From positions 80,991,038-81,055,037 of the forward strand of contig OV277856.1 of NCBI GenBank assembly GCA_922989275.2: DNA of 64,000 nt, written 5' to 3'. Origin of the DNA: Gari tellinella (Eukaryota > Mollusca > Bivalvia > Cardiida > Psammobiidae). Positions 14,681 to 33,834 of the stretch are shown here, one piece after another. The first letter of the stretch is position 1; every line of letters begins with the position of its first letter. A model generated the notes under the pieces. The model ran no database searches. It was not told the origin of the DNA and saw nothing but the letters and a program-made list of their open reading frames with translations. The translations under genes and the position numbers were made by a program.

Positions 14681-14725
14681 ACCCAGATCGGGCTCACGGC
14701 AGGCACGTCGGAGCCCGATCTGGGT
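14681..14725. repeat. Perfect 15-bp palindrome
   Basis: ACCCAGATCGGGCTC and GAGCCCGATCTGGGT are separated by 15 nt. The rest of 14400-15400 holds repeat-like sequence with no supportable gene. Confidence 0.5.
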
Positions 14726-17664: not shown

Positions 17665-17810
17665 GGTCCAATGTTATAAAGCGTTTGAGCTGAGTCTGAG
17701 TAAGTTCTCAAGCATTTGATTGGTCAGATTTGAGCCTAGGCTCAAATCTGACCAATCAAATGCTTAAGAACGACTTTAGACTCAACTGAAAAACTTTATA
17801 ACCTTGGACC
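17665..17810. mobile_element. Palindromic element I (GGTCCAATGTTATAAAG ends)
   Basis: Inverted ends GGTCCAATGTTATAAAG and CTTTATAACCTTGGACC. The centre is a near-perfect palindrome with arms CATTTGATTGGTCAGATTTG and complement meeting at AGCCTAGGCT. No ORF. Confidence 0.6.
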
Positions 17811-18657
17811 ATGAACTATGGCGGGACACGGACTATTTCTAGCAGCACTGAAACAGAATTTGATAAATAGATAATTTAAGTCTGGATAGACAGGTGGGTG
17901 TGTTTTACGTTTAGCCTACTTTAACACTTTGGCTCTCGAAAACATGGTACTAAAATAAGTTTTCCTTTTAAGCGCCAATTTAACAGACAGATCTACGCAG
18001 GACTGTTCAGATTTAGAATATTTAATTTCCGTACTTGCTTAATATATCCTAGAATATCCTTGAAAGGAACTTGTATAAATGACATTTAAAAAGACTTAGT
18101 GCTTATTTATTAAAATTAATTATGATATTCTCTGTTCTTCTATTCCCATTTATGATGAAGAATTAAACGGGTCGGATAATTAACTCCAACTTGGTAGTTT
18201 AGTTATCTTCTTTTTCAACTTCCCACATAAACGTTTATTTTGAACAATAGATCAAAAGAGTTCAGAGTGTATTTTTCTATATCGACTTTGTCTTATCTTG
18301 GTGTCTTTAGCTGCTCTCAGGAATTCGACATTTCTTTATCATTCACAAATTCCGTCCCTAGCCAATACAATCGTTTATTCCTCTTTCATTGTTGAGCAGA
18401 TTACTCAGTATCTCCAGATATTGTGGATATTTCAAATAGCGGTACTTATTTCCTCATTTAATCACCTATCATGTTGTTGTCACTCATTAGAACATTAGAA
18501 TCGTCGTCTCTCCAAGACGATTCTAACGTGTGGTCCCATTGATGGCGACATTAACGAAACCCTATTAGCAATGTTCAGTTAACGCACTTTTATCTAGACA
18601 ACCGGCGTACTCAGTAGCAATGTGAGTGGTCATTGGTATCAATAGTTGATATCTTAT

Positions 18658-19022
18658 ACGGTGCTTCCTCCCTACAACGGCCCTCCCAGCAACGATTCCT
18701 TCCTTACAACAACGCTTGCCGCTGGTCCGAAAACAAGACAATTATTTCTAACCCTGTCATTGGTGCAATTACGTGTGCTGAAAAGTGTCGTCTGCTGTTT
18801 TTTTCTAAAGTAACATAATGGACATTTTAACTGAAAAAACCATAATGACGAGTGACTAATAGCTTGAATCCAGATCAGACGCCGCGTTACGCGGCGTCTG
18901 ATCTTGACTTAAGCTGTTTGTAAATGTAGCCAATGTATCTCCATATAACGACTCCCTCCAAACAACGAACACAATTGTTGTCTACCATTTGGTGTCGCTT
19001 TAAAGAGGGAGCGCTTTATTAC
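18658..19022. mobile_element. MITE family F copy with family B/E-type core
   Basis: GTGCTTCCTCCCTACAACGG start and AGAGGGAGCGCTTTAT end; CTCCCTCCAAACAACGAAC repeats. The core is the CCAGATCAGACGCCGCGTTA palindrome typical of families B and E. Confidence 0.55.
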
Positions 19023-19145
19023 ATAGATCAGACTTCTACATATAATAATAATGCAACAAGTAGTTCTATCTCACGCCATGGGAGCTATGTACATCTATTT
19101 GACCTTTTGCCTGTCGATTGCGACTCGATTATCTCATTTCTAATG

Positions 19146-19212
19146 TCTCCATCTAATCCTGTCTTGAGTCATCTCTTTTCCAAAGAGATGACACAAGACA
19201 GGATTAGATGGA
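19146..19212. repeat. Family G core palindrome
   Basis: CTCCATCTAATCCTGTCTTG and inverse CAAGACAGGATTAGATGGAG around CTCTTTTCCAAAGAG. Abuts element K copy 2. Confidence 0.55.
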
Positions 19213-19259
19213 GAAACCAATAATAATTAAGAATTTTAGAATCCGACTTACGACAGTAC

Positions 19260-19804
19260 TTAAAGCGACTCGCAACCAGATGGTGCATTAAAAATAGTAA
19301 TTTGTAAATATGTGTCAAACGCTTATATAAATGGTAAAGAATTAGTTTAGGATAAGAAATTCTGTTTAAAAAAATGTATTTCAATAAAAAAAAATATTGG
19401 TCTCTGGTGGGATTCGAACCCGGGGCCCCGGCATTGGCGGACAGAAGGCAAAATAGGGGAAACCGCTTAGACCAATGGACCACGGAACTATCCGTTTATC
19501 TCGGATCGATTTAACGTATTTCAATGTGTAGCATCGAAAGTGCATACAACTTCGTAATTCGGCTCGTGTTTATGTCTGAGCCCGTGTAGAGAAGCAACAA
19601 CAACAACTATACCGTCTACTAGTCGGTATAGAAAAACGATGGAAAATATCTAAAAATCTAAGATTCGGTGACGATTCTTGAGACTTTTTTTGGACTGATC
19701 ATATTTTTTTAATGTCAGAAGCCAAATAATGCCACAAATTTGCTTTTATTTGAGTATTTTATTTTATTTTGACAAGTATACCATCCGGTTGCGAGTCCCT
19801 TTAA
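19260..19804 (-). mobile_element. Element K copy 2: TIR element with tRNA-like module
   Basis: Ends TTAAAGCGACTCGCAACC and (inverted) CCGGTTGCGAGTCCCTTTAA. Inverted relative to copy 1 at 12885, with shared internal blocks at both sides of the tRNA-like region. 545 bp, no ORF. Confidence 0.7.
19404..19492 (-). other. tRNA-like (A box/B box) segment inside element K
   Basis: On the minus strand, an A box TGGTCTAAGCGG (19463-19474) and B box GGTTCGAATCC (19410-19420) with GCCGGGGCCCCGG between. Looks like a class II (long variable arm) tRNA-derived sequence. An intact cloverleaf is not evident. Confidence 0.6.
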
Positions 19805-21148
19805 TAAGGCGGGCTCCTGATCTGCATCTTAAATGCTTGACATGGTTTCTTCATTGTAAACGTGCATAAATCATGAGTTGGCGCACATTGTCATGAAGAG
19901 GTGTTTTATTCACTTATGGTCCAGCTATAGGCATACAATGTGATCTTCAGTGCTTCTTTCATCTTATTATAATGCGTCTAGATATTTGTGAGTCGTTAAT
20001 CTAAACCAATCAATGGCTTTCTTTCACAAACGTACACATTAGCATACAGTACAAACCCTGATGAGGCGCCGCAATGTTCCGTTGTTTCAGCAGGGTCTTC
20101 ATTGTTTGCTATTTCGTATCAAGATATCTATGATGTGGACAAACACTACTGTGTCTTTAAATGGTCCGTTAATCTATCATGAAATGAGCATGTAGCGACA
20201 GTTAACTCAATATCCCAACATAAATGGATGTTCCAACAACGACAACAGCCATTGTTTTTCGAGATAGCAGCAAAACAGTTTTTGACCAACTTCAACAAAT
20301 TAAACAAAAGGATTGTAACAGTGCGGAGCTCAAGATATGGTGAATATTTCATAATTGTGTGTCCACCTAATAACTCTATATCTAGCATTCTCATTAGCGT
20401 CCTCTCTTCCTGATGTTGGGTAGAGACGGACAGGAGAAAACGCTTGTACATGTATTTGTTTCCTTTTATCTGGAGTTTTCATCACCACCATCATCATCGT
20501 CATCCAGTTTCAACTAACCAGGCCATTGATTTATCCTCCTTACAAGGGTGAGACCTGGTTGTCTAGTCGGGAACGAAGTCTCACTCTCCATGCTTTGCGA
20601 TTTTGTGGATGTGTGTCTTGCGGTCAATTTTCACAAGGTCTTCCCAACTATTATAGCTTTGGGACCACGCTGTGTTGTGATGTTCAGGCATCTAGTTTGG
20701 GAGACTTAGCTTGAGCTGCACTCTTATCGGCGGTAGTGGGCTAAATGCACGCATACTAAAACATGCTTGTGTCGTGTGTCAGTATTAGTTTTTCGTTGCA
20801 TAGCAAATTTAATTCCTGCTTGATTGATTCTCCGTAGAACACCTACCGGGCTTGCAATTACATAATATTTCGAGAAAATAATTGATTTATAATTACATTG
20901 GTACATTCGCTCCCTGAGAGTGACAACATGTACTATGAATTTGATTAATTAGTCGGGAATACCTAATTATTCGTTCTCTTTAAAGCAAACACAAAATGAA
21001 GTGTGTTTCTTTTTCTAAAATGGAGACAGTTTATTTTAATGAGTGCAACAAATAGTTTGGAATCTGAACATGCGCCATTTTAACCTTATCATGCAGAATT
21101 TTCGTCTGCTACAAATATATCGTCTGTGCAGGAAGTCATAATATACGT
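19805..21148. other. No supportable feature
   Basis: Open stretches of 60-100 codons on both strands near 20146-20451 overlap each other and show no recognisable domain or splice context. I see no gene or clear repeat here. Confidence 0.4.
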
Positions 21149-21369
21149 TTAACCCCTTCACTGCCTTGACGTCATCAAGTTTAAACAATTGTCGTCTGCT
21201 TTGCTTTCTCAAATTCAATGTTTAGGTTTTTTGAGTAAAGAAATATTGAAATGAGTATCAAACAGTTTGAATCCTGATTAGACGCCGTGTTGCGCGGCGT
21301 CTAATCAGGATTCAAACTGTTTGCTACTATATAACCGTTGTACTCGGGGTAAGGCAGTGAAGGGGTTAA
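21149..21369. mobile_element. MITE family B copy (well preserved)
   Basis: TTAACCCCTTCACTGCC ... GGCAGTGAAGGGGTTAA; core AACAGTTTGAATCCTGATTA around CGCCGTGTTGCGCGGCG. Nearly identical to 11702-11918 but inverted. Confidence 0.8.
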
Positions 21370-21730
21370 GCGTTTTAAACATAGAAAAGTTGAGAATGAG
21401 TGGCAAGCAGTACGTAACGCGGCGTCTGATCTGTATCCAAACTGAATCAAAACTAAGTCGCGCTTAGCTTGATAAGGGTTAACAGCAACAGCATTTTTTG
21501 TGGGAAACAGATCGCTTTCCCCACTTTTAAAACTTTTGTTATGTATTGTAGCTAAAAGCACGACGATACGGACAATTTTGTGACAATTTTAGAAAACATA
21601 TTGGATCCAAATGATTCACAGAGTATCTCCGCGTCTCATCTGCATCCAAACTGTTTTACAGTCTTATGATATTTCGAAACGAGTTTGTAAGATAACACTG
21701 TTACGAGAGTCACTCACTACTAGAATATTG

Positions 21731-21985
21731 CAGGGCTGCCATTTTTCCGGATTTTCCTAAATCTCCGGATTTTTTCCCAAGTTTATGGTAGCTTAAAGCA
21801 GGCTGAAAGTAAAGCAGAATGCGCCCTAAGGCGCATTCTGATTTACGTTCAACCTGCTTTAAGTAGTCCCATGTCAATAAAACAAGAAAAAGGCTATAGG
21901 GTAAAGGTACGATTCGTAAAATCGCACTTGAAAAATGCAAATTTGGAAATCTTAGGATTTTTCATGTCAACTTATGGCAGCCCTG
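21731..21985. mobile_element. Short TIR element (CAGGGCTGCCAT) with family A core
   Basis: Perfect 12-bp inverted ends CAGGGCTGCCAT / ATGGCAGCCCTG flanked by ATATTG on both sides. The CAGGG start is typical of hAT non-autonomous elements (inference). The interior contains a family A palindrome (AGCAGGCTGAAAGTAAAGCA). Confidence 0.6.
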
Positions 21986-22168
21986 ATATTGTAAATGAAC
22001 ACTATATTGCGTGCTAAAAATTAATGCAAAACGTTGTTTATTTTCAATACCTAAACTGTATAGAAGTATAATCATGTTCACATGGGTGTCTTTGAACTGT
22101 TGATGGATGTCCGGTAAATGATCTTATCAACAGTCAACAGTTTGTATCCTATTTTAAGAAATAACTAC

Positions 22169-22331
22169 AGCATTCCCCCTCGACAACGACACCCAATGGG
22201 AGACAGAAATTGTGTGCGTTGTTCGGAGGGAATCGTTCTATATGGAGAGAAATCGGCTTACATCCGCAAACAGCTTGAATCTAGAACAGACGCCGCGAAA
22301 CGAGGCGTGTGATCTGTATTCAAACTGTTTG
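22169..22331. mobile_element. MITE family F fragment
   Basis: ATTCCCCCTCGACAACGACA ... GTTCGGAGGGAATCGTTCTA with core CAGCTTGAATCTAGAACAGA / CTGTATTCAAACTGTTTG. Confidence 0.5.
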
Positions 22332-22629: not shown

Positions 22630-22634
22630 GTTTT
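22630..22634. repeat. Target site duplication, left (GTTTT)
   Basis: GTTTT borders the element at both ends (here and 33830-33834). Five base pairs is usual for Ty3/gypsy. The next four bases (AAAG) also agree on both sides, so a 9-bp duplication with TG...CA-ended LTRs is an alternative reading. Confidence 0.75.
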
Positions 22635-22870
22635 AAAGTGTTCACATATAAAGCATCAAGAGTAACTAAGTAAACTGACTCACCCACTCTGTATATAAGT
22701 TGTCACGGCTGTACTTGACTTCTGTCTGCTTTGGCTACTGGCAATGAACTCAGTTTGCAAATGGCGCGAGAGCCTATTTATGCCGTCCCTGACCCGCGCT
22801 TCTACATAAAGTAGTACCGATTCATACGCGAAGTAGTTCCGTAGAGGTCAGGGGTTAACCAATCACAACA
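22635..22870 (-). repeat. 3' LTR (236 bp)
   Basis: Reads identical, by eye, to the LTR at 33594-33829. On the element strand it starts TGTTGTGATTGG. A TATA-like CATAAATAGG lies at 22773-22782. CCCTGACC and GGTCAGGG form an inverted pair across the U3 part. The AAAG at its + strand start could belong to the target duplication instead. Confidence 0.92.
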
Positions 22871-22889
22871 CTCCCCCCATCTTTATCTT
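22871..22889 (-). promoter_or_regulatory. Polypurine tract
   Basis: On the element strand, AAGATAAAGATGGGGGGAG directly abuts the TGTTG start of the 3' LTR, the expected place and composition for the plus-strand primer of reverse transcription. Confidence 0.85.
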
Positions 22890-23477
22890 GAAAGCCTTGC
22901 TTCGGGGTTGAGAATTACATGTTTGTCAAGACTGTATTTGTAACCATGTTGGATAGTTAAAAAGCTATCCCTTTTGCTATGAGCTAAAAGCCCAAGCCAT
23001 GGCAACCGACTGAAAGCCAGGTTAACCATCTTTATCAAGCTAAGCGATTCTGACTGAAAGCCAGGATCAGGCTTATCCAACTGAAAGCTAGGATTACCCC
23101 TGTTAAGCTTGATGTCGAACTAGGCGATTCTGACTGAAAGCCAGGATCAGGCTTATCCAACTGAAAGCTAGGATTACCCCTGTTAAGCTCGACTTTCCAG
23201 GATGATTCTTAATGTCAAAGATTGATCCGACTGCAAGCCAGGATACTACTTGACTGTTGATGTCTAAGTGACCTGATTCTGAATGTCAAGGATTGATCCG
23301 ACTGAAAGCCAGGATACTACTTGACAATTGGGTCCTAATTGATCTGATTCTGAACGTCAAGGATTGATCCGACTGAAAGCCAGGATACTACTTGACGGTT
23401 GGGGCCTTGCAGGCATTTTACAACTTAAGTAGAGCTGCAAGCTTACCTACTTAGTTGTGCCAGATGTCTAGATCACA
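22890..23477 (-). repeat. Repeat-rich 3' UTR of the retrotransposon
   Basis: Non-coding stretch between the ORF3 stop and the polypurine tract. It holds two copies (period 80 bp) of a unit ending TGTTAAGCT, then three copies (period about 70-75 bp) of a GATTGATCCGACTGAAAGCC unit. GACTGAAAGCC (GGCTTTCAGTC on the element strand) occurs exactly at 23008, 23052, 23132, 23300 and 23371, and the same 11-mer recurs inside pol and ORF3. Confidence 0.75.
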
Positions 23478-26291
23478 CTACTGCCCTTGGTACAAACGAC
23501 GAGCGTTTGCAACTGTAACCTCTAGTATACGGTCCGCAGAGGTCCCTCGGCAACGAGCAACCTCCTTAGCAACAGTCATCAGTTGCCCTGGCGACGAGGA
23601 GCGAGTGCCCATACTTGAAAAGTAGGGTGCATCGGACTCTAGAAGCAGGCGACCCTCCTCAATACTCCGTAACGCTTCCACCTGATCAGGGCTGAAAGTC
23701 CTGACTTGATTGGTGAAGCCGAAGTACGTCTCCGGATAGACCTCCCTCCAACGCCTCAGTACATACTGATTACCGCTAAAACAGTGAAGATGGATCGGAT
23801 GACGAGAGCGAACCATAAACCGCATGAAATGCAATAGAAGCAAGAAGGCTTCAGTTCCGCAATCGTCATTCAGTCCCCTACAATGAATTACCAGAACATG
23901 TCGGTCCTTAAGTAAGGGCAGAACTGCTTGCAGTAGTTCTATCTGCAAGTGCCAGTTTTGTATTAGCTCAGTGTGATCAATTCCCACCTCTCCTAAGGCT
24001 TTGACTCTAGGGTTCTCTAGAAGTTTAGCCATTTTCTCAATGCCCTTCTTGATCTGCCTTGATCCCAATTTCGCATGCCTTGGGTGAAACCCGACAGCCA
24101 CTGACACATCTTCGGGTAAGTCTGAAAGATTTCTACGAGAAGGATATGTACTGGGATCGCAGTAGACCGCCACAGAACCCACCAACTGAACTCGTTCCGC
24201 TCTATGTACGCGAACGGCAGCTAACAAATCTGTTAGCGATCCTGAAGCCGGTAATTTGCAGCTTTTCAGTGATCTGTCTAGGTGAAAGTGGCTATCAAAC
24301 GCCTTTGGTAAGACGTCCACCTCACCGACAGATGCACTGACCGCCATTGGTGTAGCAATAAATTCAGGAGCGCTAGACACAGATTCTGCCTCAACAAATT
24401 TAGGCGTTTCAGACACAGATTCGGCCTGTGGTTGGGACAAAACTTCAAGCGGACTGAAAGCCACACTTTCCATCTGATCCACAACATATACAGATTCTGC
24501 CGGCATGTGGGCTGAAACTTCAAGTGGACTGAAAGCCACACCTTCAGTCTGATCCACTGCAGAAATCTGATCCACAGCATAATCTGTTAAATCTATTTCT
24601 GGTCTTTGAAACTTGTCCATCCACTCCTGCCTCTCCTCCCTTTTCAGATTGGCAGCGATTAGACAAACAACTTTCCAATGAACGAGCACAGCAACTGAGT
24701 TGGGTGGTTGAAACATAAAGTGAGGGGGTACAGGCAATCTAAGGTGATGGCACATACCTGTCATTGCCTTGTGCTGATTTTCTGACAAACTAGACTTGTC
24801 CGGAACTGACAACATACGCTGTGCCTTTATGAAATTCAGCAATAATGTTAGGGAAGCTTGATTCCCTAACAACCATCTGGCGGCTTGTTCTAGGGCGGCC
24901 ACTCTAGATTGATTGACAATAGTGCTGTCAGTCGGCAACGCTTCCGCAAAGATGCCTGGTACATGATATGTGAATGCATGTGCTTTAGGGTAGGTAGTTG
25001 GCACAGCACACCCAGGCATCGTACAGCAGTGGTGACGACGCACTGGCAATTCAGGGTGGCTAACGACATCACGTTGCTGCTTTACTTTCTGCAGTATGTC
25101 TTGGGTTTTCTGCTTCTTAAGGACCGTGGTAGAAATTACCAAGGGCTCAAGAACAGAGAAACCCCGTTTTTGGGCTCCAACAGTCTTAGGCTGGCGACTG
25201 GGATCAAGAAGTTCAGAGGAAGCGTCCCGGCTGATCCGAACTACCCGCTCACACACCTTGGCAGCAGGAACAGTGCTGGAAGCTTTCTGTTCCCGGACCG
25301 CAGAGTTAGATTGGGATGTCTGACCCGAGCTACCGGACTTACCCCTCTTACCCTTCTTTACCACTCTTTTACCACCTTTTGACACAGTAACCTTGTGGCC
25401 AGAACTGAAAGTTTGGTGACCAACAACAGGTTCCTTGATCTTGGGGTCAGAACTGGAAGTTTGGTGACCTTTGATCCTTTTGCTGGGACCCTTGGATGTC
25501 GCTTTCCCATAGCGAACAACATCAGCCCAGGACTTGGAAGTTTGGCTGGGTCTGATTGGTTCTACCTGCTTAGAACTGGAAGCTCGTACAGGATCCGGAA
25601 CCTTGCCTGTGGGTGCAGTAACAGGTGCTGGTTTGGCAGAGTCACCAGACAGATTGGAAACCTTAACTGGAGATTGACTCGCCGGGACGGAGAGAAAACT
25701 GACACTAACCACACAAGGGCTGGAAGCCGTGGCAGTCTCTGCTTTACTCTCCCCTGTAGCAGCCTGTTTAGTGGCTAGTCTGGGTGACCTACGGGGGCTT
25801 TCTGTTTCCATGGGCTCCCCGGTGACAGAAGGAGTTTTTAACAATCTTTCCTCCTCTTCCTTGCTAATCTCCGTCCGTAGAACATGCCTTACTATTTTCG
25901 CCTCGGCAGAATCTTTGTAACGAATGTCACTCATTCCTGCCAAGGGATCATAGATTTGTTCCTTGGGCGTAGGGAGCTTAGGCATAACCCAGACATTCTC
26001 GCTGATCCAATCTCGATCAACGAGCTCGTAAGACTCCATGGTCTTGGCTGCTTCTTTCAGCCATTTTCTCCAACCTTTGTTGTTGCGAGAAGTGGTGTAC
26101 TTAACCTTTACGAGAGCCACCATGCGCAAAATAGCGGCTAACAGAGCTTGGGCTTTATCCAAGCCACCCATATATCTCTTGCACAGAGACAGTTTTTTAA
26201 TGAATGCCTCTGCAGGCTGATATACTTGGCCCCTTTTCAGATAATCATCAACTTCATCCTGGAAATCTCTCGGTTTCTTTTGGTCAGCCAT
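23478..26291 (-). CDS. ORF3: zinc-finger-like, TatD-type nuclease protein
   Basis: Predicted metal-dependent hydrolase of the TatD deoxyribonuclease family encoded by the retrotransposon. The open frame runs from 26411 (977 codons). I place the start at the ATG at 26291 (MADQKK, codon 41) because a strong 3' splice site ends 3 nt before it. Counting from 26411, a basic K/R-rich stretch lies at 346-358, a C2H2-like motif (C463, C468, H478, H483) at 460-487, duplicated VAFSPLEV peptides at 625-657, and the TatD domain at 703-977: DSHFHLD (706-712), VGFHP (773-777), GEVGID (807-812), VIHCR (841-845), HLHCFSG (874-880), LLESDAP (923-929). All metal and catalytic positions expected for TatD are present, so activity is plausible. 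It overlaps the pol end by 32 nt only in the upstream extension. Its job in the element is unknown; trimming of cDNA or host-DNA processing is speculation. Confidence 0.88.
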   Translation of the reverse strand: MADQKKPRDFQDEVDDYLKRGQVYQPAEAFIKKLSLCKRYMGGLDKAQALLAAILRMVALVKVKYTTSRNNKGWRKWLKEAAKTMESYELVDRDWISENVWVMPKLPTPKEQIYDPLAGMSDIRYKDSAEAKIVRHVLRTEISKEEEERLLKTPSVTGEPMETESPRRSPRLATKQAATGESKAETATASSPCVVSVSFLSVPASQSPVKVSNLSGDSAKPAPVTAPTGKVPDPVRASSSKQVEPIRPSQTSKSWADVVRYGKATSKGPSKRIKGHQTSSSDPKIKEPVVGHQTFSSGHKVTVSKGGKRVVKKGKRGKSGSSGQTSQSNSAVREQKASSTVPAAKVCERVVRISRDASSELLDPSRQPKTVGAQKRGFSVLEPLVISTTVLKKQKTQDILQKVKQQRDVVSHPELPVRRHHCCTMPGCAVPTTYPKAHAFTYHVPGIFAEALPTDSTIVNQSRVAALEQAARWLLGNQASLTLLLNFIKAQRMLSVPDKSSLSENQHKAMTGMCHHLRLPVPPHFMFQPPNSVAVLVHWKVVCLIAANLKREERQEWMDKFQRPEIDLTDYAVDQISAVDQTEGVAFSPLEVSAHMPAESVYVVDQMESVAFSPLEVLSQPQAESVSETPKFVEAESVSSAPEFIATPMAVSASVGEVDVLPKAFDSHFHLDRSLKSCKLPASGSLTDLLAAVRVHRAERVQLVGSVAVYCDPSTYPSRRNLSDLPEDVSVAVGFHPRHAKLGSRQIKKGIEKMAKLLENPRVKALGEVGIDHTELIQNWHLQIELLQAVLPLLKDRHVLVIHCRGLNDDCGTEAFLLLLHFMRFMVRSRHPIHLHCFSGNQYVLRRWREVYPETYFGFTNQVRTFSPDQVEALRSIEEGRLLLESDAPYFSSMGTRSSSPGQLMTVAKEVARCRGTSADRILEVTVANARRLYQGQ

Positions 26292-26312
26292 AATCTGCAA
26301 CAGAAAGCAGAA
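26292..26312 (-). promoter_or_regulatory. Probable 3' splice site for ORF3 mRNA
   Basis: Element strand: TTCTGCTTTCTGTTGCAG followed by ATT and then the MADQKK ATG. A pyrimidine-rich tract plus CAG directly before a start codon suggests a spliced subgenomic mRNA, as for env genes. Possible donors in the leader are AAG/GTACGC (33361/33360) and TTT/GTAAGA (33476/33475). Confidence 0.6.
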
Positions 26313-26379
26313 CATATTAGCACAAGCTCTTAGTTTACTGATCCTAACCAGCTTAATGCTCACCCGAATATCAGTCGTG

Positions 26380-26529
26380 TTACTTGCAAGCCCTACATTT
26401 GTACTTATCAATGTTCAATGCATCAGATGGACCAACATTGACACATGAACCGTGGTACCATTCATCACAGAAATCACACTGAATCATAAACCTACCTTTC
26501 CAGGGCTGTCTGCAGAAGCAATATACTTC
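26380..26529 (-). other. PHD finger coding segment at end of integrase
   Basis: The last 49 Pol residues form a complete PHD finger, with VYCFCRQP, FMIQCDFCDEWYHGSC and YKCRAC. The aromatic residue before the first cysteine, the FMIxCD strand and the W two residues before the histidine match the CFP1/KDM7 type that reads H3K4me3 (family knowledge). Chromatin targeting of the integrase is inferred. Confidence 0.88.
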
Positions 26530-29500
26530 CACTTCATCCGAGTCTGGAAGGGCGTCTACTTGATCAGGAGATTCCCTGTGCTTGGTCACCCAGGCCGGCA
26601 AGTTTCTGTCCTTACATGGCATCATTCTGTCATGATTCACGACCAACACTGCTTTCCGAAGCTTCACCCGGTACAAATAGGGTGTGATCTTATTAATGAT
26701 TATGGCTGGACCTTTCCAAGGAGAGCATAATTTGCGACACTTACCTTTTGTGACAGCAGTATCTAAAAGATATACTATATCACCTTCATTGTAAGGTCTC
26801 AGGAGTACCTTCAGATCATAATTTCGCTTCATTCTCTTTAATGAAGTCTTTAATGTACTCCTCGCCATGTCGTGTGCAGCCTGTATACTCTGTAGAAGAC
26901 CAGAGATATACTCACCATACCCTTCAGGTTGAACCTTTGCTCCAGGAAACATCAGCTGAGCCGGAGTATTAACTTCCCTCCCCAACATTAACATGTTAGG
27001 AGTGTAGCCCGTACTCCGGTTCACTGAAGACCTGATGGCCATAGCAATTTGCTGAACGTTCTCATCCCACTTATCTTGGGATTTGCCCAGGAAACACCTT
27101 ACCGCGTCCAGTAATGTGCGGTTGAAACGCTCAACCTGCCCATTAGAAGACGGACGGTAAGGAGTAGTCCTAGCCTTATGGATTTGCAAAGCTTTGCAAA
27201 GGGTTTCAAACAATTTGCCATCGAAATTTCTACCCTGATCAGAAAAGATTTGAAAAGGAAAACCGAACCGAGAGAAAAAGCTGTTTATCGCAGCTTTCGC
27301 GGTTTCCTCAGCTTTCTGAGTTGGTAAGGGTACGCATTCAACCCACTTGGTGAATTGGTCCACCATCATGAGGCAATGTTCATTACCTTTAGATGTTTTT
27401 GGCAATGGACCAATAAAATCTATATGCACACGTTCCATGGGTGCTCCCGCTTGGTATGCGGTAAGGGGAACCTTACCATATGCCTTGTTTTTCTTGTTTT
27501 TGTTGCAGATGTTGCAGGTCAAAACATATGCATCTACGTCCTGTGCCATACGGAACCAAAAGAATTTCTCCTTTAACTTGGCTTTAGTTCTTGCAACCCC
27601 CTGATGTCCAGATGTTGGTATATCATGGTGCAAAAGTAAAGCAGTTTCTTTGAGACTATCAGGAACCACTAAAAGCAGATCCTGATCTTCATCAGACAAC
27701 TTGTCCTTGAAGAGGACCCCATCAATAACCCGAAATAGCTCTTTATTGATCCAGTAGAACTTTGCTTCTGGACTAGAAAGAAACAGGACCCCTTCAGCTG
27801 GTGTGACCCCATTCTTTAACCAGTCCAGAATCAAACCTAGATTCTGGTCTTTACTTTGTGCGTCTTTCAGGTCATTGAAAGAGAAACCCCAACATGTCTT
27901 ATTTGAAGTGTCTGATTCACTTACTGCTTTAATGGAGCATTCACAGACGTAGTTTTCCTGAGTTACATGGTCGGTAACGATATCAAAATGAGAATCGCTA
28001 CCATGTAAACCAACAACATCTACAGACAAGATATGTTCTAGAAGGCATACTTCTGAGCGATCATTCAGGCCGTCTGAAAGACTGACACCTGAACCTTGAT
28101 CGACTTTGTCACTATTCAAGCCGTCTGAAAGACTGACACTTGAACCTGGACCTGTAGTGTCTTTATTCAGGCCGTCTGAAAGACTGACACCTGAACCTGG
28201 ACCTACAACACTTACAGAACCTGTACCTGAAGCTGTATCCGGAACATCTGAAAGATGTGTACCCGAATCTTGGCCAACCTTACCCTGGCAGCCTGAAAGA
28301 CATACACCAGAGCCTGGAAGAGTACAGTCTGCAAGTATAGCACCTGAACTCCCAATCTGACCCTCAAACTTTGTATCTGAAAGATTTATAGTCCCTTGAG
28401 GTGTGCTATTCTTGTTCCTTACATGCTTCACACCAGACAAATCTGCTAGCAACACTTTATCCATAACTACAGCTGCCCCCTGATTAGGTGCATTCCTTAT
28501 GGCCGCATTACTCCGAGGCGCCACTAAGCCCATGGTATCGTCCACATCTTCTGTGAACTTTGCCCATTGACTATCAGCCCTCACGCAGTAATGACAACCG
28601 CCGCATGGCAGATCTGTAGGTTTCAGGCCAGCTATATATGCTGAACAGGGCACTAAAGAATCGGGGATTCTGGAGAGTGCATCTGCGTTGCAATGTTTAG
28701 CACCGGCTCGGTGCTTTACTACCATATGGTATTGTGAAAGTTCCTCAATCCACCGAGCCAGCTGACCCTGTGGTTCCTTAAACCGTAGCAACCACGTTAA
28801 ACTGGAATGGTCAGTCCTTACTGTGAAAACCTTCCCTAGCAGATAATACCTGAATTGTCTGGTAAACCTTACTATTGCCAAAAGTTCTTTTCTGGTCGTG
28901 CAATAGTTCTTCTGCTCAGGAGTTAAGGAGAAACTACTGAAAGCAATAACTCGTTCAACTCCATCTTGCACCTGTAGCAATTCTGCACCTATTGCTACTT
29001 GTGAAGCATCTACATCCAAAATAAATGGATCTGTCAGATTGGGTAAAGATAATATGGGAGGCGAGGTTAGGACTTTCTTAAGAGCAGAGAAAGCTTCTTG
29101 CTCTTCCGGACCCCATTTAAACTGATTTTTGCCTGTTAATGCATACAAAGGCTTAGCCAATGCAGCAAAATCTTTGATGAAAGTCCTATGGTAATTAGCC
29201 AAACCAAGAAACCGTTCAACATCTTTTGATGATACCGGGACTGGCCATGCCGCTACGGTATCAGAGTCCTTAGACGTCATGGTCAGTTCGTTACCACTGA
29301 CATTACGACCTAGAAATTCTACTTGTTTTTGAAAGAAAACGCACTTTCTTGGCTTGAGCTTCATACCATGAATTTTGAACCTCTCCCATACTTCGACCAG
29401 ATTCTTCAAATGATCGTCAAAGTCTCGTCCCATTACCAGGACGTCGTCGAGGAATGCTAGGACCGTTTTCCACGTTAAACCTCTTAAAAGAAGGCTTACC

Positions 29501-31179
29501 ACTCTAGAGAACGTCGCAGGGGCGTTGGTTAAACCAAAGCCCATTCTAACGTGCTCAAAGAGTCCAAACTTTGTTAAAAAAGCTGTCTTTTTACGGTCTT
29601 CCTCTTTGACACGCACTTGCCAGTAGGCAGAGTTAGCGTCTAGTTTGGAAAACCAGACATTGCCTGCTAGCGTGTCAAGACAATCCTCTACTAATGGTAG
29701 GGGGAACGTATCCTTCACTGTGACATCGTTTAGAGCTCTATAATCAATGCACCATCTCACGGAGCCATCGCGCTTACGAATAAGCACAGGAGATGATGCC
29801 CATTCGGACATGGATTCTTGGATGACACCTGCATCGATCATTTTCTTGAGATGCCCTTCTTCTTCACTTGCGAAGCAAGCTGGGGTCCGGCGCATGTGCT
29901 GCTTAATAGGCTTTGCATCTCCGGTGTCAATCTCATGCTCTATGGCAGTGAAGCTACCCAGATCGAAATCAGTCTTTGCAAAGACATCACCATACTGACC
30001 TAGTTTGTCAGCAAGCTTTTGCCTTTGCTCAGCATTCAAGTGCTCTATTGAAGCCTTGAATACTCCTTGCAAATGATCTGGTAACCCTGCTTCATCTGCA
30101 TCTTTACCAGTTACAGCCTCTTCTTGCTGTAAACCTGTCACAGCTACTACTTTCGGAGCACTTTTTGGCTGACTGAAAGCCTGCCCTTTAGCTCCAGATG
30201 ACTGACTGAAAGACAAGTCACCTAAATCACTGGAATCTGAGTAACTGAAAGCCTGCTCAGACTCCAAGCCATTGTCTAGCACTGAGTGAAACTCATAAGC
30301 GCTAGCAACAACATCTGCCTTTTTCAGGCTTTTGTATCCATCTGTTGGATTTACCAAGCAGATGACGGGTTCTTCCCCAGAACCCCGGACTATACTTGGC
30401 ATGAGGATACCCTTTCTCTTAACCATATCACTGGGATCCATGTAGTAATCATTAAACTGAGTACTCATTTTACATGGAACTCGTATGGCAGAGTTTGGCG
30501 GAACCACCACTTTCCGCTTTAGTGTCACTCTGGCTAATCTGGGCTTACCATCTTTTAAAGTGGTTTCAACTGGGATGCTTTCCCCATTAATAATGAATGA
30601 ATCTGACTTCATGTCCAAAAACACACCCCAATGGTGCATTAAGTCATGACCTAACAACATCTCATCATTAATGGGTGCAACGTATAACCTTTCCCTGAAT
30701 GTCTGGGATCCCAGTTGCATTTGAATTGGTTTAATAATAAAGCCCTTTAAGACCGACTCGTGATCAGCCATTTGCATCACCACATCTTTTACTCTTTTGG
30801 GTTGTTGCTTAAGGTTTTCATAAACTCGAGTTGAAAGGATAGAGATCTCGGCACCGGAGTCAATCCTAGCCTTAACCACTTTCCCCCCAACCCTAAAATT
30901 GATGCACGAAGACCCCGCACAGACGCGGTGAATCTTCACTGCTTCATCGTGGAACACAGATTCAGACGGACTGAAAGCCTCGCCTTCCGTATGCCCCACA
31001 GCAGTGGCAGAGACTGGATTCAAACCAGACACAGGACTGAAAGCCTCAGTGACTGGCGTCAAACCCTGAACAACATTTTCCACACAAGGACTGGAAGCCC
31101 CAGTGTGGCCCATTTCTTGGTCACATTTAGCCACCTTTTCGTCAGGCTGAGGTACATGACCTTTAACCTCAGCCCTCAT
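26380..31179 (-). CDS. pol: Pol polyprotein: PR-RT-RNase H-IN with C-terminal PHD finger
   Basis: 1599 residues counted from the ATG at 31179, though translation probably enters by -1 frameshift from gag. Protease: DSG at 107-109 and LLGHD at 175-179. RT about 425-620: LDANSAYW with D514 and the FLDD box at 577-580 (F replaces the usual Y). RNase H: D722/D724, E765, D790, D833. A linker of about 230 residues with three tandem GVSLSDGLN-type repeats (997-1040) separates RNase H from integrase. Integrase: H1185, H1192, C1222, C1225 zinc site; D1254, D1314, E1350 (35 residues between the last two, the D,D35E spacing); GPY/F-like PWKGPAIIINKITPYLYRV near 1488. A C4HC3 PHD finger fills 1551-1599 (ligands C1554, C1556, C1568, C1571, H1576, C1579, C1595, C1598). 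No break or missing catalytic residue was seen. Confidence 0.95.
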   Translation of the reverse strand: MRAEVKGHVPQPDEKVAKCDQEMGHTGASSPCVENVVQGLTPVTEAFSPVSGLNPVSATAVGHTEGEAFSPSESVFHDEAVKIHRVCAGSSCINFRVGGKVVKARIDSGAEISILSTRVYENLKQQPKRVKDVVMQMADHESVLKGFIIKPIQMQLGSQTFRERLYVAPINDEMLLGHDLMHHWGVFLDMKSDSFIINGESIPVETTLKDGKPRLARVTLKRKVVVPPNSAIRVPCKMSTQFNDYYMDPSDMVKRKGILMPSIVRGSGEEPVICLVNPTDGYKSLKKADVVASAYEFHSVLDNGLESEQAFSYSDSSDLGDLSFSQSSGAKGQAFSQPKSAPKVVAVTGLQQEEAVTGKDADEAGLPDHLQGVFKASIEHLNAEQRQKLADKLGQYGDVFAKTDFDLGSFTAIEHEIDTGDAKPIKQHMRRTPACFASEEEGHLKKMIDAGVIQESMSEWASSPVLIRKRDGSVRWCIDYRALNDVTVKDTFPLPLVEDCLDTLAGNVWFSKLDANSAYWQVRVKEEDRKKTAFLTKFGLFEHVRMGFGLTNAPATFSRVVSLLLRGLTWKTVLAFLDDVLVMGRDFDDHLKNLVEVWERFKIHGMKLKPRKCVFFQKQVEFLGRNVSGNELTMTSKDSDTVAAWPVPVSSKDVERFLGLANYHRTFIKDFAALAKPLYALTGKNQFKWGPEEQEAFSALKKVLTSPPILSLPNLTDPFILDVDASQVAIGAELLQVQDGVERVIAFSSFSLTPEQKNYCTTRKELLAIVRFTRQFRYYLLGKVFTVRTDHSSLTWLLRFKEPQGQLARWIEELSQYHMVVKHRAGAKHCNADALSRIPDSLVPCSAYIAGLKPTDLPCGGCHYCVRADSQWAKFTEDVDDTMGLVAPRSNAAIRNAPNQGAAVVMDKVLLADLSGVKHVRNKNSTPQGTINLSDTKFEGQIGSSGAILADCTLPGSGVCLSGCQGKVGQDSGTHLSDVPDTASGTGSVSVVGPGSGVSLSDGLNKDTTGPGSSVSLSDGLNSDKVDQGSGVSLSDGLNDRSEVCLLEHILSVDVVGLHGSDSHFDIVTDHVTQENYVCECSIKAVSESDTSNKTCWGFSFNDLKDAQSKDQNLGLILDWLKNGVTPAEGVLFLSSPEAKFYWINKELFRVIDGVLFKDKLSDEDQDLLLVVPDSLKETALLLHHDIPTSGHQGVARTKAKLKEKFFWFRMAQDVDAYVLTCNICNKNKKNKAYGKVPLTAYQAGAPMERVHIDFIGPLPKTSKGNEHCLMMVDQFTKWVECVPLPTQKAEETAKAAINSFFSRFGFPFQIFSDQGRNFDGKLFETLCKALQIHKARTTPYRPSSNGQVERFNRTLLDAVRCFLGKSQDKWDENVQQIAMAIRSSVNRSTGYTPNMLMLGREVNTPAQLMFPGAKVQPEGYGEYISGLLQSIQAAHDMARSTLKTSLKRMKRNYDLKVLLRPYNEGDIVYLLDTAVTKGKCRKLCSPWKGPAIIINKITPYLYRVKLRKAVLVVNHDRMMPCKDRNLPAWVTKHRESPDQVDALPDSDEVEVYCFCRQPWKGRFMIQCDFCDEWYHGSCVNVGPSDALNIDKYKCRACK
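28060..28215 (-). repeat. Tandem repeats in the Pol RNase H-IN linker
   Basis: Three units of about 51-57 bp containing GTCTGAAAGACTGACAC on the + strand, in frame, encode GSGVSLSDGLN-like peptides. The repeats preserve the reading frame. Related degenerate units extend to about 28310. Confidence 0.75.
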
Positions 31180-31188
31180 TCGTTTAAA
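31144..31188 (-). promoter_or_regulatory. -1 ribosomal frameshift signal between gag and pol
   Basis: The slippery heptamer T TTA AAC (31182-31188 on the + strand as GTTTAAA) is exactly in the gag frame, three codons before and including AAC, with GAA and TGA following. After a 6-nt spacer comes a stem of 8 perfect pairs plus a G-U (31167-31175 with 31144-31152) and a 14-nt loop. Slipping back one base enters the pol frame (CGA ATG AGG). The gag stop and the pol ATG also overlap as ATGA, so reinitiation is an alternative. Confidence 0.85.
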
Positions 31189-33248
31189 TCTGGCTTTGTT
31201 TTGCCAAATTTTCCTGTCTTGTTCTTTTTAGACCAGTCATGATACCTCTCACATTCACGTTTAATATGACCTTTTTGTTTGCAAAAATAACATTGGATCT
31301 CTTCACTTGAGGTCTGTTGCCTCACAGGTTTTTGTGTCTGCAATCTTGCAGGAGCAGATAATTTTTGTATTTTCTGAGTTAATGTTTCAATACTTTTGGT
31401 CATGAGTTTCTCTAGATGTTCTAGCTTTGCTTCAACTTGAGGTTCAATGACATTTATGGCTAAATCATCCTTTGACTTTCCTTTCCGATTTGATTTAGGT
31501 TCTTCAACCACATCGGAGATGTATTGGTGATGCTTAACCGCATCCAAGGCTGTTTGCATGTCTTTTGGGGTTTTTAGACTGGCATACTTTGCAGCCTCTC
31601 TATCTGTACAGCCTTGGCTGAACTTAGCTATGGCTTCCCTTTCTGTGTGCCTTTCGGGAAGATGTCGGAATGCGGTTGTAGCCAGAGACAACACGCGGTC
31701 TGCCCAATCTTCAAGTGCCTCCTCGGGCTTTTGACGGGCCTGCTGAAACTTGGCTCTTGCCGTTTCAGTCAGCTCTTTTGCTCCAAATCTACTGTCCAAT
31801 TTCTTCATCATACGACGGTACGAGAGATTTTCTCCCGTCTGCGTCATAATGGCAAAGAAATTGAGAGCTTTACCCTCCAAACACCAGTGCAGGTAATCCC
31901 TACTTTCTTTGTCGGACCATCTCATTACAGACTTGTAACTTTCAAATTTCTGCTTCCAGGCCAACCAACAAGATTTTCCATCATATTTTAAATTCTTGGG
32001 GAGATCTCTGGGTATACCCCTATCATGACGCTTGTGGTGCCTGGAGCCACCCCTATGTCTGGCCCGACGATCATGGGATCTTGACCTTGACCTTGAAGAG
32101 TCCGAGACACTGTGTCTCGACCTTCTCCCATGTCGCCTATTCTGATGTTTGGACACCCTACGTCTATGCCGACGTTCCCGAGAACTTGAGCTAGAGCTCG
32201 AGCTTGAACTTGAGCTCCGATAAGCAGACCTATGAGATCGCCTTCGCGGACTCCATCTCGATCGTGACCTAGGCCTCGAACGCGACCTCGACTCAGAGCT
32301 TGATCGTGCAGACTTATGAGGCATGCGTCGGCGTCTATGTCCTGACCTTGATTTTGACCTTGAACGCGACCTAGACTCTGAACTAGAGTCTGAGGTTGTA
32401 TACCTAGATCTCTTATGCACTTTAGTCTTTGAAGACTTGTGAGCAGACCTTACAGACACCTTTTTACGTCTCGTCGACGAAAAACTATCACCCCTGTCAC
32501 TCCCCTGCCTGGAAGACAGATGTGAGTGACGAGCCGATGATGACCCATTGTGTCTGTGTTTAGAACCCCGTTTTTTACATCTGGAAGATGATGAGCTATC
32601 ATCACTATCATTCCCATGCCTGGAAGACATACGAGAATGATGAGCTGACGGCCTCTTGTTTTTATGTCTGTAAGACGATATGCTGTCATCACTTTCATCC
32701 CCATGCCTGGAAGACATGCGAGAACGATAAGCTGACGACTTCTTGGTTTTACGTCTGGAAGACGGTACATGGGGTTCACTTTCATATTGTGGTGGGGGGT
32801 CCTTATCCTCATACCTTACACCCTTCATTTTCTGTATAGCTATCCCTAACTTTTTCTTTTCTCTCTCATAATCACTAAGAGGCAAAGTCTCTTCTAAACG
32901 AAGAGACTTATCAGTCTGAATGTCTCCGACAGGCAACTTAAAAGATGGAACTGTTATGTTTCCACCATTTACGGCACCTCTCTGGATCCTTGCTGGCAAT
33001 GTCTCGCTTAATAATTGGCGATATTTAGCCTGCGTTTCTTTATATTCCTTTTCGATCCATTGCATATCCGAAGTAGGGGTAGATGCCCAAGTGTCAATTT
33101 GGGGTGACAGGGTTGCACCCTGTGGAGGACCAGTTTGAGCAGATATTCCCATTACAGGACGGACAGGTGACTTTGGAGAAACATCCACAGGTGGCCATGT
33201 AAAAGTCACATGCTTCAGTATCTCAGTTTCTCTAAGAAAGACTGGCAT
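31176..33248 (-). CDS. gag: Gag: SR-rich, capsid-like and CCHC zinc-knuckle protein
   Basis: 690 residues; an in-frame TAG two codons upstream of the first ATG fixes the start. Residues 1-160 are a matrix-like region ending with PPPQY (151-155), which contains a PPxY late-domain-type motif. Residues 165-410 are strongly Arg-Ser rich, with three to four repeats of about 30 residues (RMSSRHG...DD) and RSRSRS runs, like splicing-factor RS domains. A Retrotrans_gag-like capsid region spans about 415-580 (YDGKSCWLAWKQKFESY; later F/W-rich helices). A coiled stretch lies at 600-632. A CCHC knuckle (C653, C656, H661, C666) and a basic tail precede the frameshift site. Expected role: particle assembly and RNA packaging. 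RS domains of this length are uncommon in Gag. Confidence 0.92.
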   Translation of the reverse strand: MPVFLRETEILKHVTFTWPPVDVSPKSPVRPVMGISAQTGPPQGATLSPQIDTWASTPTSDMQWIEKEYKETQAKYRQLLSETLPARIQRGAVNGGNITVPSFKLPVGDIQTDKSLRLEETLPLSDYEREKKKLGIAIQKMKGVRYEDKDPPPQYESEPHVPSSRRKTKKSSAYRSRMSSRHGDESDDSISSYRHKNKRPSAHHSRMSSRHGNDSDDSSSSSRCKKRGSKHRHNGSSSARHSHLSSRQGSDRGDSFSSTRRKKVSVRSAHKSSKTKVHKRSRYTTSDSSSESRSRSRSKSRSGHRRRRMPHKSARSSSESRSRSRPRSRSRWSPRRRSHRSAYRSSSSSSSSSSSSRERRHRRRVSKHQNRRHGRRSRHSVSDSSRSRSRSHDRRARHRGGSRHHKRHDRGIPRDLPKNLKYDGKSCWLAWKQKFESYKSVMRWSDKESRDYLHWCLEGKALNFFAIMTQTGENLSYRRMMKKLDSRFGAKELTETARAKFQQARQKPEEALEDWADRVLSLATTAFRHLPERHTEREAIAKFSQGCTDREAAKYASLKTPKDMQTALDAVKHHQYISDVVEEPKSNRKGKSKDDLAINVIEPQVEAKLEHLEKLMTKSIETLTQKIQKLSAPARLQTQKPVRQQTSSEEIQCYFCKQKGHIKRECERYHDWSKKNKTGKFGKTKPDLNE

Positions 33249-33573
33249 AGGTAACTAACGGAATCTGCAAACTGTCCTAAGAGACTGACATAGGAAAATA
33301 TGAAAGACAATGCTATCAAATTCCCTAAGAAATTAATTAGCCAACGCTAATTAGGCGTACCTTGACCTTATGTTTACTTAAATGTTGAAGCAGAATAAAT
33401 AAAGCAGTGCTGCATTTAAATATCCTTTGCTGTCAACCTGTCATGACACTTTATATGTTTCTTACAAAGAAAGAACTCCCGCCGCTGACACGGAAAAAAT
33501 AAATTTTTCCGAGAATTTGTACACGCGAAAATACGTGACAAACTGGCAAGGTAGCTTTACTGTACTTTCCAAT
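33249..33573 (-). other. Retrotransposon 5' leader
   Basis: Untranslated leader between PBS and gag ATG with several short upstream ATGs and two donor-like sites (GTAAGA at 33475, GTACGC at 33360). A packaging signal would be expected here but cannot be recognised by eye. Confidence 0.6.
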
Positions 33574-33591
33574 TTTAAATCCTCGTCGCCA
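33574..33591 (-). promoter_or_regulatory. Primer binding site, tRNA-Ser(GCU) type
   Basis: Element strand begins TGGCGACGAGGAT two bases after the 5' LTR. The complement ATCCTCGTCGCCA equals the 3' end plus CCA of the conserved animal tRNA-Ser(GCU) (acceptor 3' strand CCTCGTCG). Match length 13 nt. Confidence 0.8.
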
Positions 33592-33593
33592 AT

Positions 33594-33829
33594 AAAGTGT
33601 TCACATATAAAGCATCAAGAGTAACTAAGTAAACTGACTCACCCACTCTGTATATAAGTTGTCACGGCTGTACTTGACTTCTGTCTGCTTTGGCTACTGG
33701 CAATGAACTCAGTTTGCAAATGGCGCGAGAGCCTATTTATGCCGTCCCTGACCCGCGCTTCTACATAAAGTAGTACCGATTCATACGCGAAGTAGTTCCG
33801 TAGAGGTCAGGGGTTAACCAATCACAACA
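33594..33829 (-). repeat. 5' LTR (236 bp)
   Basis: Drives transcription of the element. By-eye comparison with 22635-22870 shows no difference over 236 bp. TATA-like CATAAATAGG at 33732-33741 on the minus strand; likely transcription start about 25-30 nt downstream (lower coordinates). Confidence 0.92.
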
Positions 33830-33834
33830 GTTTT
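33830..33834. repeat. Target site duplication, right (GTTTT)
   Basis: Copy of the GTTTT at 22630-22634. Confidence 0.75.

What the first reader, a model, noticed from the sequence alone, without database searches (positions are those of the whole stretch)
23478..26291. LTR retrotransposon encodes a TatD-type nuclease as a third ORF
Seen: an intact long ORF inside the LTRs, after pol, ends in a domain with all TatD hallmarks in order (DSHFHLD, VGFHP, GEVGID, VIHCR, HLHCFSG, ESDAP). Known: TatD enzymes are metal-dependent 3'-5' DNA/RNA exonucleases or AP endonucleases. TATDN2-like proteins are annotated in many copies in mollusc and cnidarian genomes (recollection). Inference: those multi-copy genes may be retroelement ORF3s, and the element may use a nuclease for cDNA trimming, host RNA decay or defence evasion.
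Basis: partly seen in the sequence, partly recalled or inferred. Interest (0 to 1): 0.88.

Follow-up and report, generated by a model that had tools for sequence, protein, structure and literature searches.

The report
Retrotransposon lineage carrying a TatD nuclease
A lineage of virus-like jumping genes in this animal genome (probably a bivalve) carries, besides its usual genes, a third gene for a TatD-type nuclease that selection keeps intact, so some animal genes filed as 'TATDN2-like' probably belong to mobile elements.

Summary
Window 22634-33829 (minus strand) is an LTR retrotransposon of Ty3/gypsy gene order: identical 237-nt LTRs, 4-bp target duplication, gag, pol ending in a PHD finger, and a separate 937-aa ORF3 whose C-terminal part is a TatD nuclease (PF01026, E 7e-35) with its metal ligands kept.

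It is not a one-off. In the same genome 16 full-length ORF3 copies are 97-100% alike. In genome-wide (capped) lists, 95 of 150 TatD matches lie 1.2-5 kb downstream of a related integrase, none in the wrong order; 99 of 109 integrase matches are followed by TatD/ORF3. Five families looked at closely have LTR repeats, a splice-acceptor-like site before ORF3, and agreeing pol and TatD trees. Within the window's family the TatD domain is under purifying selection (22 synonymous, 7 nonsynonymous variants).

ORF3 has two further conserved domains unknown to Pfam. Its TatD domain is sister to animal TATDN2. The substrate is unknown; my guess is a nuclear nuclease acting on RNA or RNA:DNA hybrids.

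Closest precedent: DEDDy-exonuclease ORF3s of bdelloid LTR elements. Three pol-less derivatives with lost catalytic residues may be host exaptations.

The parts
22634..22870 (-). 3' LTR (element sense is the minus strand)
   Evidence: 237 nt, 100% identical to 33593-33829
33593..33829 (-). 5' LTR
22630..22633 (.). target site duplication gttt, one side
   Evidence: letters checked; a 4-bp duplication also fits families C, D and E
33830..33833 (.). target site duplication gttt, other side
   Evidence: letters checked
33579..33592 (-). primer binding site TTGGCGACGAGGAT directly after the 5' LTR
   Evidence: the 12-mer TTGGCGACGAGG also follows the family B LTR. That it fits a serine tRNA end is recalled, not tested
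22871..22881 (-). polypurine tract GATGGGGGGAG directly before the 3' LTR
31176..33254 (-). gag open frame (692 aa): PNMA-like capsid match, CCHC knuckle (just under its cut-off), long SR-rich stretch
26380..31227 (-). pol open frame (1615 aa): protease, RT, RNase H, integrase, PHD finger
26386..26520 (-). PHD finger at the end of pol
   Evidence: PF00628 E 1.3e-7; letters
26295..26325 (-). splice-acceptor-like site (pyrimidine tract and CAG), 3 nt before the ORF3 ATG
23478..26291 (-). ORF3, 937 aa
25962..26264 (-). ORF3 N-terminal helical domain, residues 10-110, no Pfam match
   Evidence: model pLDDT 86-98 by block; N-terminal profile found in 45 of 140 proteins; Pfam found only TatD in this protein
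24567..25034 (-). ORF3 central domain, residues 420-575: C2H2-like finger (C423 C428 H438 H443) plus helices, no Pfam match
   Evidence: conserved columns; profile found in 82 of 140 proteins; model
23487..24299 (-). TatD nuclease domain, residues 665-935
23035..23415 (-). 78-nt and 71-nt tandem repeats in the 3' non-coding part
   Evidence: the 3' LTR end lies 71 nt nearer or farther in different copies

Best explanation
The ORF is the third gene of a lineage of Ty3/gypsy-type LTR retrotransposons. It makes a three-domain protein: a helical N-terminal domain, a C2H2-like finger with helices, and a TatD nuclease. A TATDN2-related gene was most likely taken up once by an ancestor of the lineage and has been inherited together with pol since. 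Shown: the linkage to pol and LTRs, the many copies and families, the kept active site, purifying selection within the window's family, agreeing pol and TatD trees. Inferred: it is translated from a spliced mRNA, as env genes are, and acts as a metal-dependent nuclease in trans. Mechanism I think most likely (about 0.4): the finger and N-terminal domain bring the nuclease, in the nucleus, to RNA or RNA:DNA hybrids (intermediates of the element, or host R-loop or silencing structures), much as human TATDN2 is reported to act on R-loops, and this helps new copies to be completed or weakens host control.
For: LTRs, TSD, gag, pol. 16 full-length copies at 97-100%, each followed by the LTR, 13 of 16 with a 3' flank unlike the others. 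Integrase upstream of 95 of 150 TatD matches, none in wrong order or orientation nearby; TatD/ORF3 after 99 of 109 integrase matches. Read directly: family A 22 of 22 insertion places fetched, families B-E 4 of 4 plus 14 of 14, other families 10 of 13. HxH, E, H, H, D kept in 16 of 16 family A copies and in all 13 other pol-linked families whose domain is in one frame. Selection, 14 copies: TatD 22 syn/7 nonsyn (binomial p 5e-9), residues 1-140 5/1, linkers 12/24 (p 0.24); TatD against linkers Fisher p 0.001. Pol and TatD trees of five families have the same shape. Acceptor-like site before the ATG in 5 of 5 families. ORF3 clade 98/90, TATDN2 clade 100/98, both together 100/99 against bacterial TatDs. 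TATDN2 as R-loop RNase: passages of PMC12709183.
Against: No transcript, splice junction or enzyme activity was seen. 55 of 150 TatD matches have no listed integrase within 5 kb; the integrase list held only 108 scored of 2203 candidates, so many are untested rather than negative, but 3 of 13 read directly were pol-less. Pol already has an RNase H, so a second hybrid nuclease is not plainly needed. The acceptor-like sites of families B and C are only moderately rare (0.141 and 0.078 of windows; crude home-made score). The AU test did not reject a tree with TATDN2 inside the ORF3s (p 0.087), and the lower ORF3 branches are weak, so one capture is favoured, not proved. The selection test treats variants as independent. 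TatD enzymes of both classes act on DNA (PMC10085689, passages), so the substrate is open.
Confidence: 0.85

Rival explanations
1. ORF3 is a DNA-end enzyme of the element: its TatD domain trims 3' ends or incises abasic sites in cDNA or at integration gaps, not RNA.
For: Human TATDN1 and TATDN3 and three E. coli TatDs have 3' exonuclease and AP endonuclease activity on DNA (PMC10085689, passages). The ORF3 domain has the class II HxH motif shared by TATDN3. Structure matches are DNases by name.
Against: The sequence tree groups ORF3 with TATDN2, reported as an RNase. ORF3 lies in its own frame with an acceptor-like site, which suggests it is not made as part of the pol polyprotein that copies cDNA.
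Confidence: 0.25
2. ORF3 acts against the host: it destroys small-RNA precursors, antisense or innate-immune nucleic acids that restrain the element.
For: Separate gene, probable separate mRNA, rapid protein divergence: TatD identity 34-47% between families where RT-RNase H identity is 65-75%, as in proteins in conflict with a host. Three pol-less derivatives with lost catalytic residues.
Against: Fast divergence is also seen in loosely constrained accessory genes; within family A the TatD domain is conserved, not positively selected. No target known.
Confidence: 0.25
3. ORF3 is a passenger: a captured TATDN2-like gene with no use to the element.
For: For the bdelloid ORF3s the authors found no significant departure from neutrality (PMC5408684, passage).
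Against: TatD 22 syn/7 nonsyn and residues 1-140 5/1 while linkers are near neutral; catalytic residues kept over families with only 34-47% TatD identity; present after 99 of 109 related integrases.
Confidence: 0.05
4. The TatD genes are ordinary host TATDN2 genes, and the retroelement sits beside them by chance or picked one up once.
For: Many such proteins are named TATDN2 or TatD in databases.
Against: 95 of 150 TatD matches share one order and orientation with pol and none the reverse; 16 near-identical copies, each followed by the LTR and with pol upstream; the proteins named TATDN2 from vertebrates lack the two ORF3 domains.
Confidence: 0.02

Closest known systems
Enzymatic ORF3s of bdelloid rotifer LTR retrotransposons (Vesta, Juno; DEDDy exonuclease or GDSL esterase), PMC5408684 (abstract and passages seen)
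   Same: A third ORF after pol codes for a nuclease; the paper says ORF3s of LTR retrotransposons are typically expressed from spliced messages; catalytic residues largely kept; function unknown.
   Different: Different nuclease fold (DEDDy/RNase D-like against TatD TIM barrel), different host group, two further ORF3 domains here, co-inheritance with pol and measurable purifying selection here, whereas the bdelloid ORF3s were reported as swapped between element classes and near neutral.
Animal TATDN2 (vertebrate P0063, P0064, P0067; arthropod and Elysia homologues P0054, P0055, P0060, P0062)
   Same: Closest cellular TatD domain in the tree; class II HxH active site; long disordered N-terminal part.
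   Different: About 27-33% identity to the window's domain; no match to the ORF3 N-terminal or central domain in these 7 proteins; not element-borne as far as known (recalled).
Ty3/gypsy (Metaviridae) LTR retrotransposons
   Same: LTRs, PBS, PPT, gag with CCHC, pol in the order protease-RT-RNase H-integrase.
   Different: PHD finger at the end of pol and a TatD ORF3 in place of env.
Retroviral-type env ORF3 (errantiviruses and the like; recalled)
   Same: Position between pol and the 3' LTR and acceptor-like site before the ATG.
   Different: No env family in Pfam for ORF3; the product is a predicted nuclease.

Membership tests
Ty3/gypsy LTR retrotransposon | Long terminal repeats with target duplication | tested here: met
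   237 nt identical, gttt on both sides
Ty3/gypsy LTR retrotransposon | pol order protease-RT-RNase H-integrase | tested here: met
   Pfam coordinates within pol 110-198, 483-642, 705-833, 1188-1359
Ty3/gypsy LTR retrotransposon | gag with nucleocapsid knuckle | tested here: met
   PNMA 1.9e-8 over its cut-off; zf-CCHC 19.4 bits, just under its cut-off of 20.8
Ty3/gypsy LTR retrotransposon | Which clade (e.g. Mag lineage) | not tested
   No reference elements were at hand
TatD nuclease family | PF01026 above its cut-off | tested here: met
   121 bits against 27
TatD nuclease family | TatD fold | tested here: met
   Model and Foldseek against PDB; the 17 best matches are TatD-family entries or annotated hydrolases of that fold
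TatD nuclease family | Metal ligands HxH, E, H, H, D (HxH as class II motif from PMC10085689; the other positions recalled and aligned) | tested here: met
   H668, H670, E768, H803, H836, D887
TatD nuclease family | Nuclease activity | not testable with these tools
   Needs an assay
TATDN2 orthologue | Inside the TATDN2 clade | tested here: not met
   ORF3s form a sister clade (98/90) to TATDN2 (100/98); AU test of one alternative p 0.087, not decisive
TATDN2 orthologue | N-terminal region like that of TATDN2 | tested here: not met
   ORF3 N-terminal and central profiles absent from 7 TATDN2-type proteins; but P0113, which joins the TATDN2 clade, has a weak central-domain match (2e-4)
Bdelloid-type DEDDy ORF3 | DEDDy exonuclease domain | tested here: not met
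   Pfam finds only TatD in ORF3
env-type spliced ORF3 | 3' splice site directly before the ORF | tested here: inconclusive
   Acceptor-like sites in 5 of 5 families by a crude score; no RNA data, no donor assigned

The most novel reading that the evidence does not exclude
The host has at least three times turned an ORF3 of this lineage into a gene of its own after the catalytic residues were lost. Such dead copies, still holding the finger and the TatD shell, would compete with the element's ORF3 for its target and so restrain the element. Seen: three long open frames (907, 1615 and 608 aa in the pieces read) with the central domain, several catalytic residues lost, no pol in 8.0-9.1 kb upstream of the TatD domain, at three separate places in the ORF3 tree. 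Not seen: expression, orthologues, or any restriction; decaying copies are the plain alternative, above all for the 907-aa one, which is close to an active-looking family.
Probability: 0.15. Interest if true: 0.85.

Novelty: new variant of a known kind. Interest (0 to 1): 0.72.

Why it matters
If right, a TatD nuclease is a lasting, selected gene of a retrotransposon lineage, the second kind of nuclease known as an ORF3 of LTR elements after the bdelloid DEDDy type. It would explain why TATDN2-like genes appear in many copies in mollusc annotations, would warn against counting them as host gene expansions or, in symbiont MAGs, as bacterial genes, and would make a question testable: what does an LTR retrotransposon gain from a nuclease besides RNase H and integrase? 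The dead, pol-less derivatives offer a place to look for exapted host genes.

Tried and rejected
Chance ORF or mere motif match: rejected. One-off capture: rejected for this genome. Readthrough from pol as the only route to ORF3: not excluded; by the coordinates the gag-pol step is a -1 shift and the pol-ORF3 step is not, so I prefer splicing. Relatives in IMG/VR viral contigs: 39 stretches fitted a pattern, none was a relative. Relatives in GTDB contigs: 1 locus, 26% identical, a MAG contig from a seawater sample by its title (L040), not followed. Direct search for prior reports: TatD with retrotransposon and LTR (4 papers), with gypsy (3 papers), with transposable element (27 papers, 25 listed), TATDN2 alone (69 papers, 40 listed), TATDN2 with gene family and bivalve terms (loose match, none of the 12 listed holds TATDN2), nuclease third ORF, PHD finger with integrase. 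From the listings and the few passages opened none describes a TatD ORF in a retroelement; the library lacks most subscription papers and Repbase reports.

Results that failed or were dropped: one search used a wrong frame for family C and is replaced. In one search the TatD region of L033 was mislocated; only its L057-L064 comparison is used (TatD dN/dS 0.16, central domain 0.38). The tree holds 72 of 119 full-length domains, chosen by hand; for I dropped 10 rows (mostly long branches) and added 13; L068 was left out (broken frame). One search leaves out L008 and L009 (tandem copies of L007) and skips stop codons (one lies in the TatD domain, residue 742); one search uses 10 of the 16 copies. 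My note gives other upstream lengths for the pol-less loci; 8.0-9.1 kb is the recount.
Full report
What is in the window. On the minus strand, 22634-33829 is one LTR retrotransposon. The two LTRs are 237 nt and identical. They are flanked by gttt on both sides, followed by a primer binding site and preceded by a polypurine tract. Three open frames fill the inside: gag (31176-33254), pol (26380-31227) and ORF3 (23478-26291); they are the only three frames of 180 aa or more (stop to stop) in the 64-kb window. Pfam gives a PNMA capsid match and a sub-threshold CCHC knuckle in gag; aspartic protease, RT, RNase H, integrase and a C-terminal PHD finger in pol; and only TatD_DNase in ORF3, at residues 665-935, E 7.1e-35. 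Solved relatives by sequence are TatD DNases. An AlphaFold model of ORF3 (39-row alignment) has three confident parts, residues 10-110, 420-575 and 660-937, separated by disorder; by Foldseek its best PDB matches are TatD structures. The middle part begins with two short strands and a helix carrying C423, C428, H438 and H443, a C2H2-like finger.

It is a multi-copy gene of the element. In the 1.6-Gb genome that holds the window, ORF3 has 16 full-length copies at 97-100% identity, 14 without stops, besides fragments and more distant relatives (only 49 of 568 candidates were scored). Each of the 16 has pol immediately upstream and the LTR downstream. Thirteen have a 3' flank unlike the others; the other three (L003, L008, L009) run into a second LTR, as in tandem copies. 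Counting the broken copies that were fetched, 22 of 22 family A insertion places have pol; one further fragment (C3:31933723) was not fetched.

It is a lineage, not one family. Four divergent families (B-E; TatD 34-47% identical to each other and to A) have pol upstream in the four copies read at length and in 14 of 14 further copies. LTR repeats were found for C (242 nt, 99.6%), D (270 nt, 100%) and E (297 nt, 100%), with 4-bp duplications, and for B over the 59 nt that fell inside the fetched stretch (100%). A and B share one primer-site 12-mer, C, D and E another. A Pfam search of the genome scored 150 TatD matches of 213 candidates, all above the cut-off. A search with the last 380 residues of the window's pol gave 109 matches, 108 scored of 2203 candidates. 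Of the 150 TatD matches 95 have one of these integrases 0-5 kb upstream on the same strand (gap 1188-4997 nt, median 1633), and none has one nearby in another order or orientation; of the 109 integrases 99 have TatD or ORF3 within 5 kb downstream. Fourteen further TatD places outside A-E were read: 10 have integrase upstream; three (L064, L065, L066) do not; one (L067, on a 44-kb contig) looks bacterial and groups with bacterial TatDs.

It is under selection. Among 14 non-redundant family A copies the TatD domain shows 22 synonymous and 7 nonsynonymous variants where neutrality expects 3.2 nonsynonymous for each synonymous (p 5e-9); residues 1-140 show 5 and 1 (p 0.002); the two linkers 12 and 24 (p 0.24); the central domain 6 and 8. 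The end of pol, in 10 copies, shows 19 and 6. Metal-ligand positions 668, 670, 768, 803, 836 and 887 are kept in 16 of 16 family A copies and in families B-E and L055-L063, 13 of 13; in L068 they are kept but split by a frame break; position 834, not a ligand, is Q in L055 and L059.

How it may be expressed. In 5 of 5 families a pyrimidine tract and CAG stand 1-3 nt (A, B, C, E) or 40 nt (D) before the ORF3 ATG. By a crude score such a site or better occurs in 0.007, 0.141, 0.078, 0.010 and 0.010 of 70-nt windows of the respective stretch. This suggests a spliced mRNA; it is not proof, and I assigned no donor.

Origin. The N-terminal and central domains are not in Pfam. Among 140 proteins (5 from this genome, 135 found by search) 44 have both plus TatD, 38 the central domain and TatD, 1 the N-terminal domain and TatD, 57 TatD alone; many of the last are short pieces. 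The seven TATDN2-type proteins (three vertebrates, Elysia, spider, crayfish, ostracod) have TatD alone. In the tree ORF3-type domains form one clade (60 rows, 98/90), TATDN2 another (8 rows, 100/98, including P0113 with a weak central-domain match), both together stand apart from bacterial TatDs (100/99). Rows named TATDN2 or YcfH-like from Mizuhopecten and Mercenaria, and rows from Lingula, Pecten, Dreissena, Pinctada, Saccostrea, Ruditapes and Tegillarca, fall in the ORF3 clade. Several rows of the ORF3 clade have no known context. Holding TATDN2 together with the main ORF3 group, without the lowest branch (which includes the pol-linked L055), is not rejected (p 0.087), so a single capture is favoured but two captures or a TATDN2 derived from an ORF3 remain open. 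RT-RNase H and TatD trees of families A-E have the same shape, ((A,B),(E,(C,D))), with 100/100 and 96/95 for the main split and 73/77 and 76/84 for (C,D).

Function. Human TATDN1 and TATDN3 act on DNA (PMC10085689, passages); [quoted passage not shown] the original paper was not read). As ORF3 is nearest to TATDN2, has a finger and basic linkers, and seems to be made apart from pol, I favour a nuclear role on RNA or RNA:DNA hybrids, at about 0.4. This is inference.

Comparison. The nearest precedent is the DEDDy and GDSL ORF3s of bdelloid LTR elements (PMC5408684, abstract and passages). Here the fold, host group, extra domains, selection and long co-inheritance with pol differ. I found no report of a TatD ORF in a retroelement in the searches listed in Tried and rejected. 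In the giant squid genome paper a 'TATDN2' and transposon-like genes are drawn among the non-Hox genes of the Hox cluster (figure legend, PMC6962438), which fits but was not tested.

Exaptation lead. L064, L065 and L066 have the central domain and long open frames, no pol match in 8.0-9.1 kb upstream of the TatD domain and several lost catalytic residues (L064: Y at 670, Q at 803, Q at 836; L065: Y at 668, G at 768, S at 887; L066: HxH missing, R at 803, A at 836). They sit at three places in the tree. L064 against L057 gives a TatD dN/dS of 0.16, but this averages over both branches.

Noticed in passing
window 23009-31046 (+ strand matches): The 11-mer ACTGAAAGCCA (one mismatch allowed) occurs 16 times in the window against 1.6 expected, all on the + strand and all inside the element: 8 in the 3' non-coding part, 2 in an ORF3 linker, 6 in the pol frame. 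The 9-mer core is absent from the family B-E stretches. Unexplained.
   Followed up: partly
window 26386-26520; pol ends of families A-E: A PHD finger ends pol and its residues are conserved at the pol ends of families B, D and E and of copies of B and C; in the L055 type the integrase profile match stops before it. It may guide integration.
   Followed up: partly
window 31176-33254: gag carries a long SR-rich stretch, like splicing factors.
   Followed up: no
L003, L008, L009: Family A copies followed directly by a second LTR and internal sequence (tandem copies; on C19 three copies spaced 11,988 nt).
   Followed up: partly
P0068, P0083, P0086, P0042: 'TatD family hydrolase' proteins of Thiodiazotropha and Sedimenticola MAGs are ORF3-type (66% to the window for P0068), so these MAG contigs probably carry host-animal DNA.
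   Followed up: partly
L067 (G000:C59:14500-18500): A 44-kb contig of the assembly carries a bacterial-type TatD, possibly a contaminant.
   Followed up: partly
L064, L065, L066: Pol-less ORF3 relatives with long open frames and lost catalytic residues; exaptation or decay.
   Followed up: partly
P0057, P0056, P0058, P0053, P0119; L055: A lower branch of ORF3-type TatDs, with a weak or undetected central domain; L055 is pol-linked, so an older or separate TatD-bearing gypsy group may exist.
   Followed up: partly
window 16119-22331 and 12885-19804: Six 66-nt palindromic repeats and long inverted repeats (153 nt arms, 98% complementary, 6.6 kb apart) beside the element.
   Followed up: no
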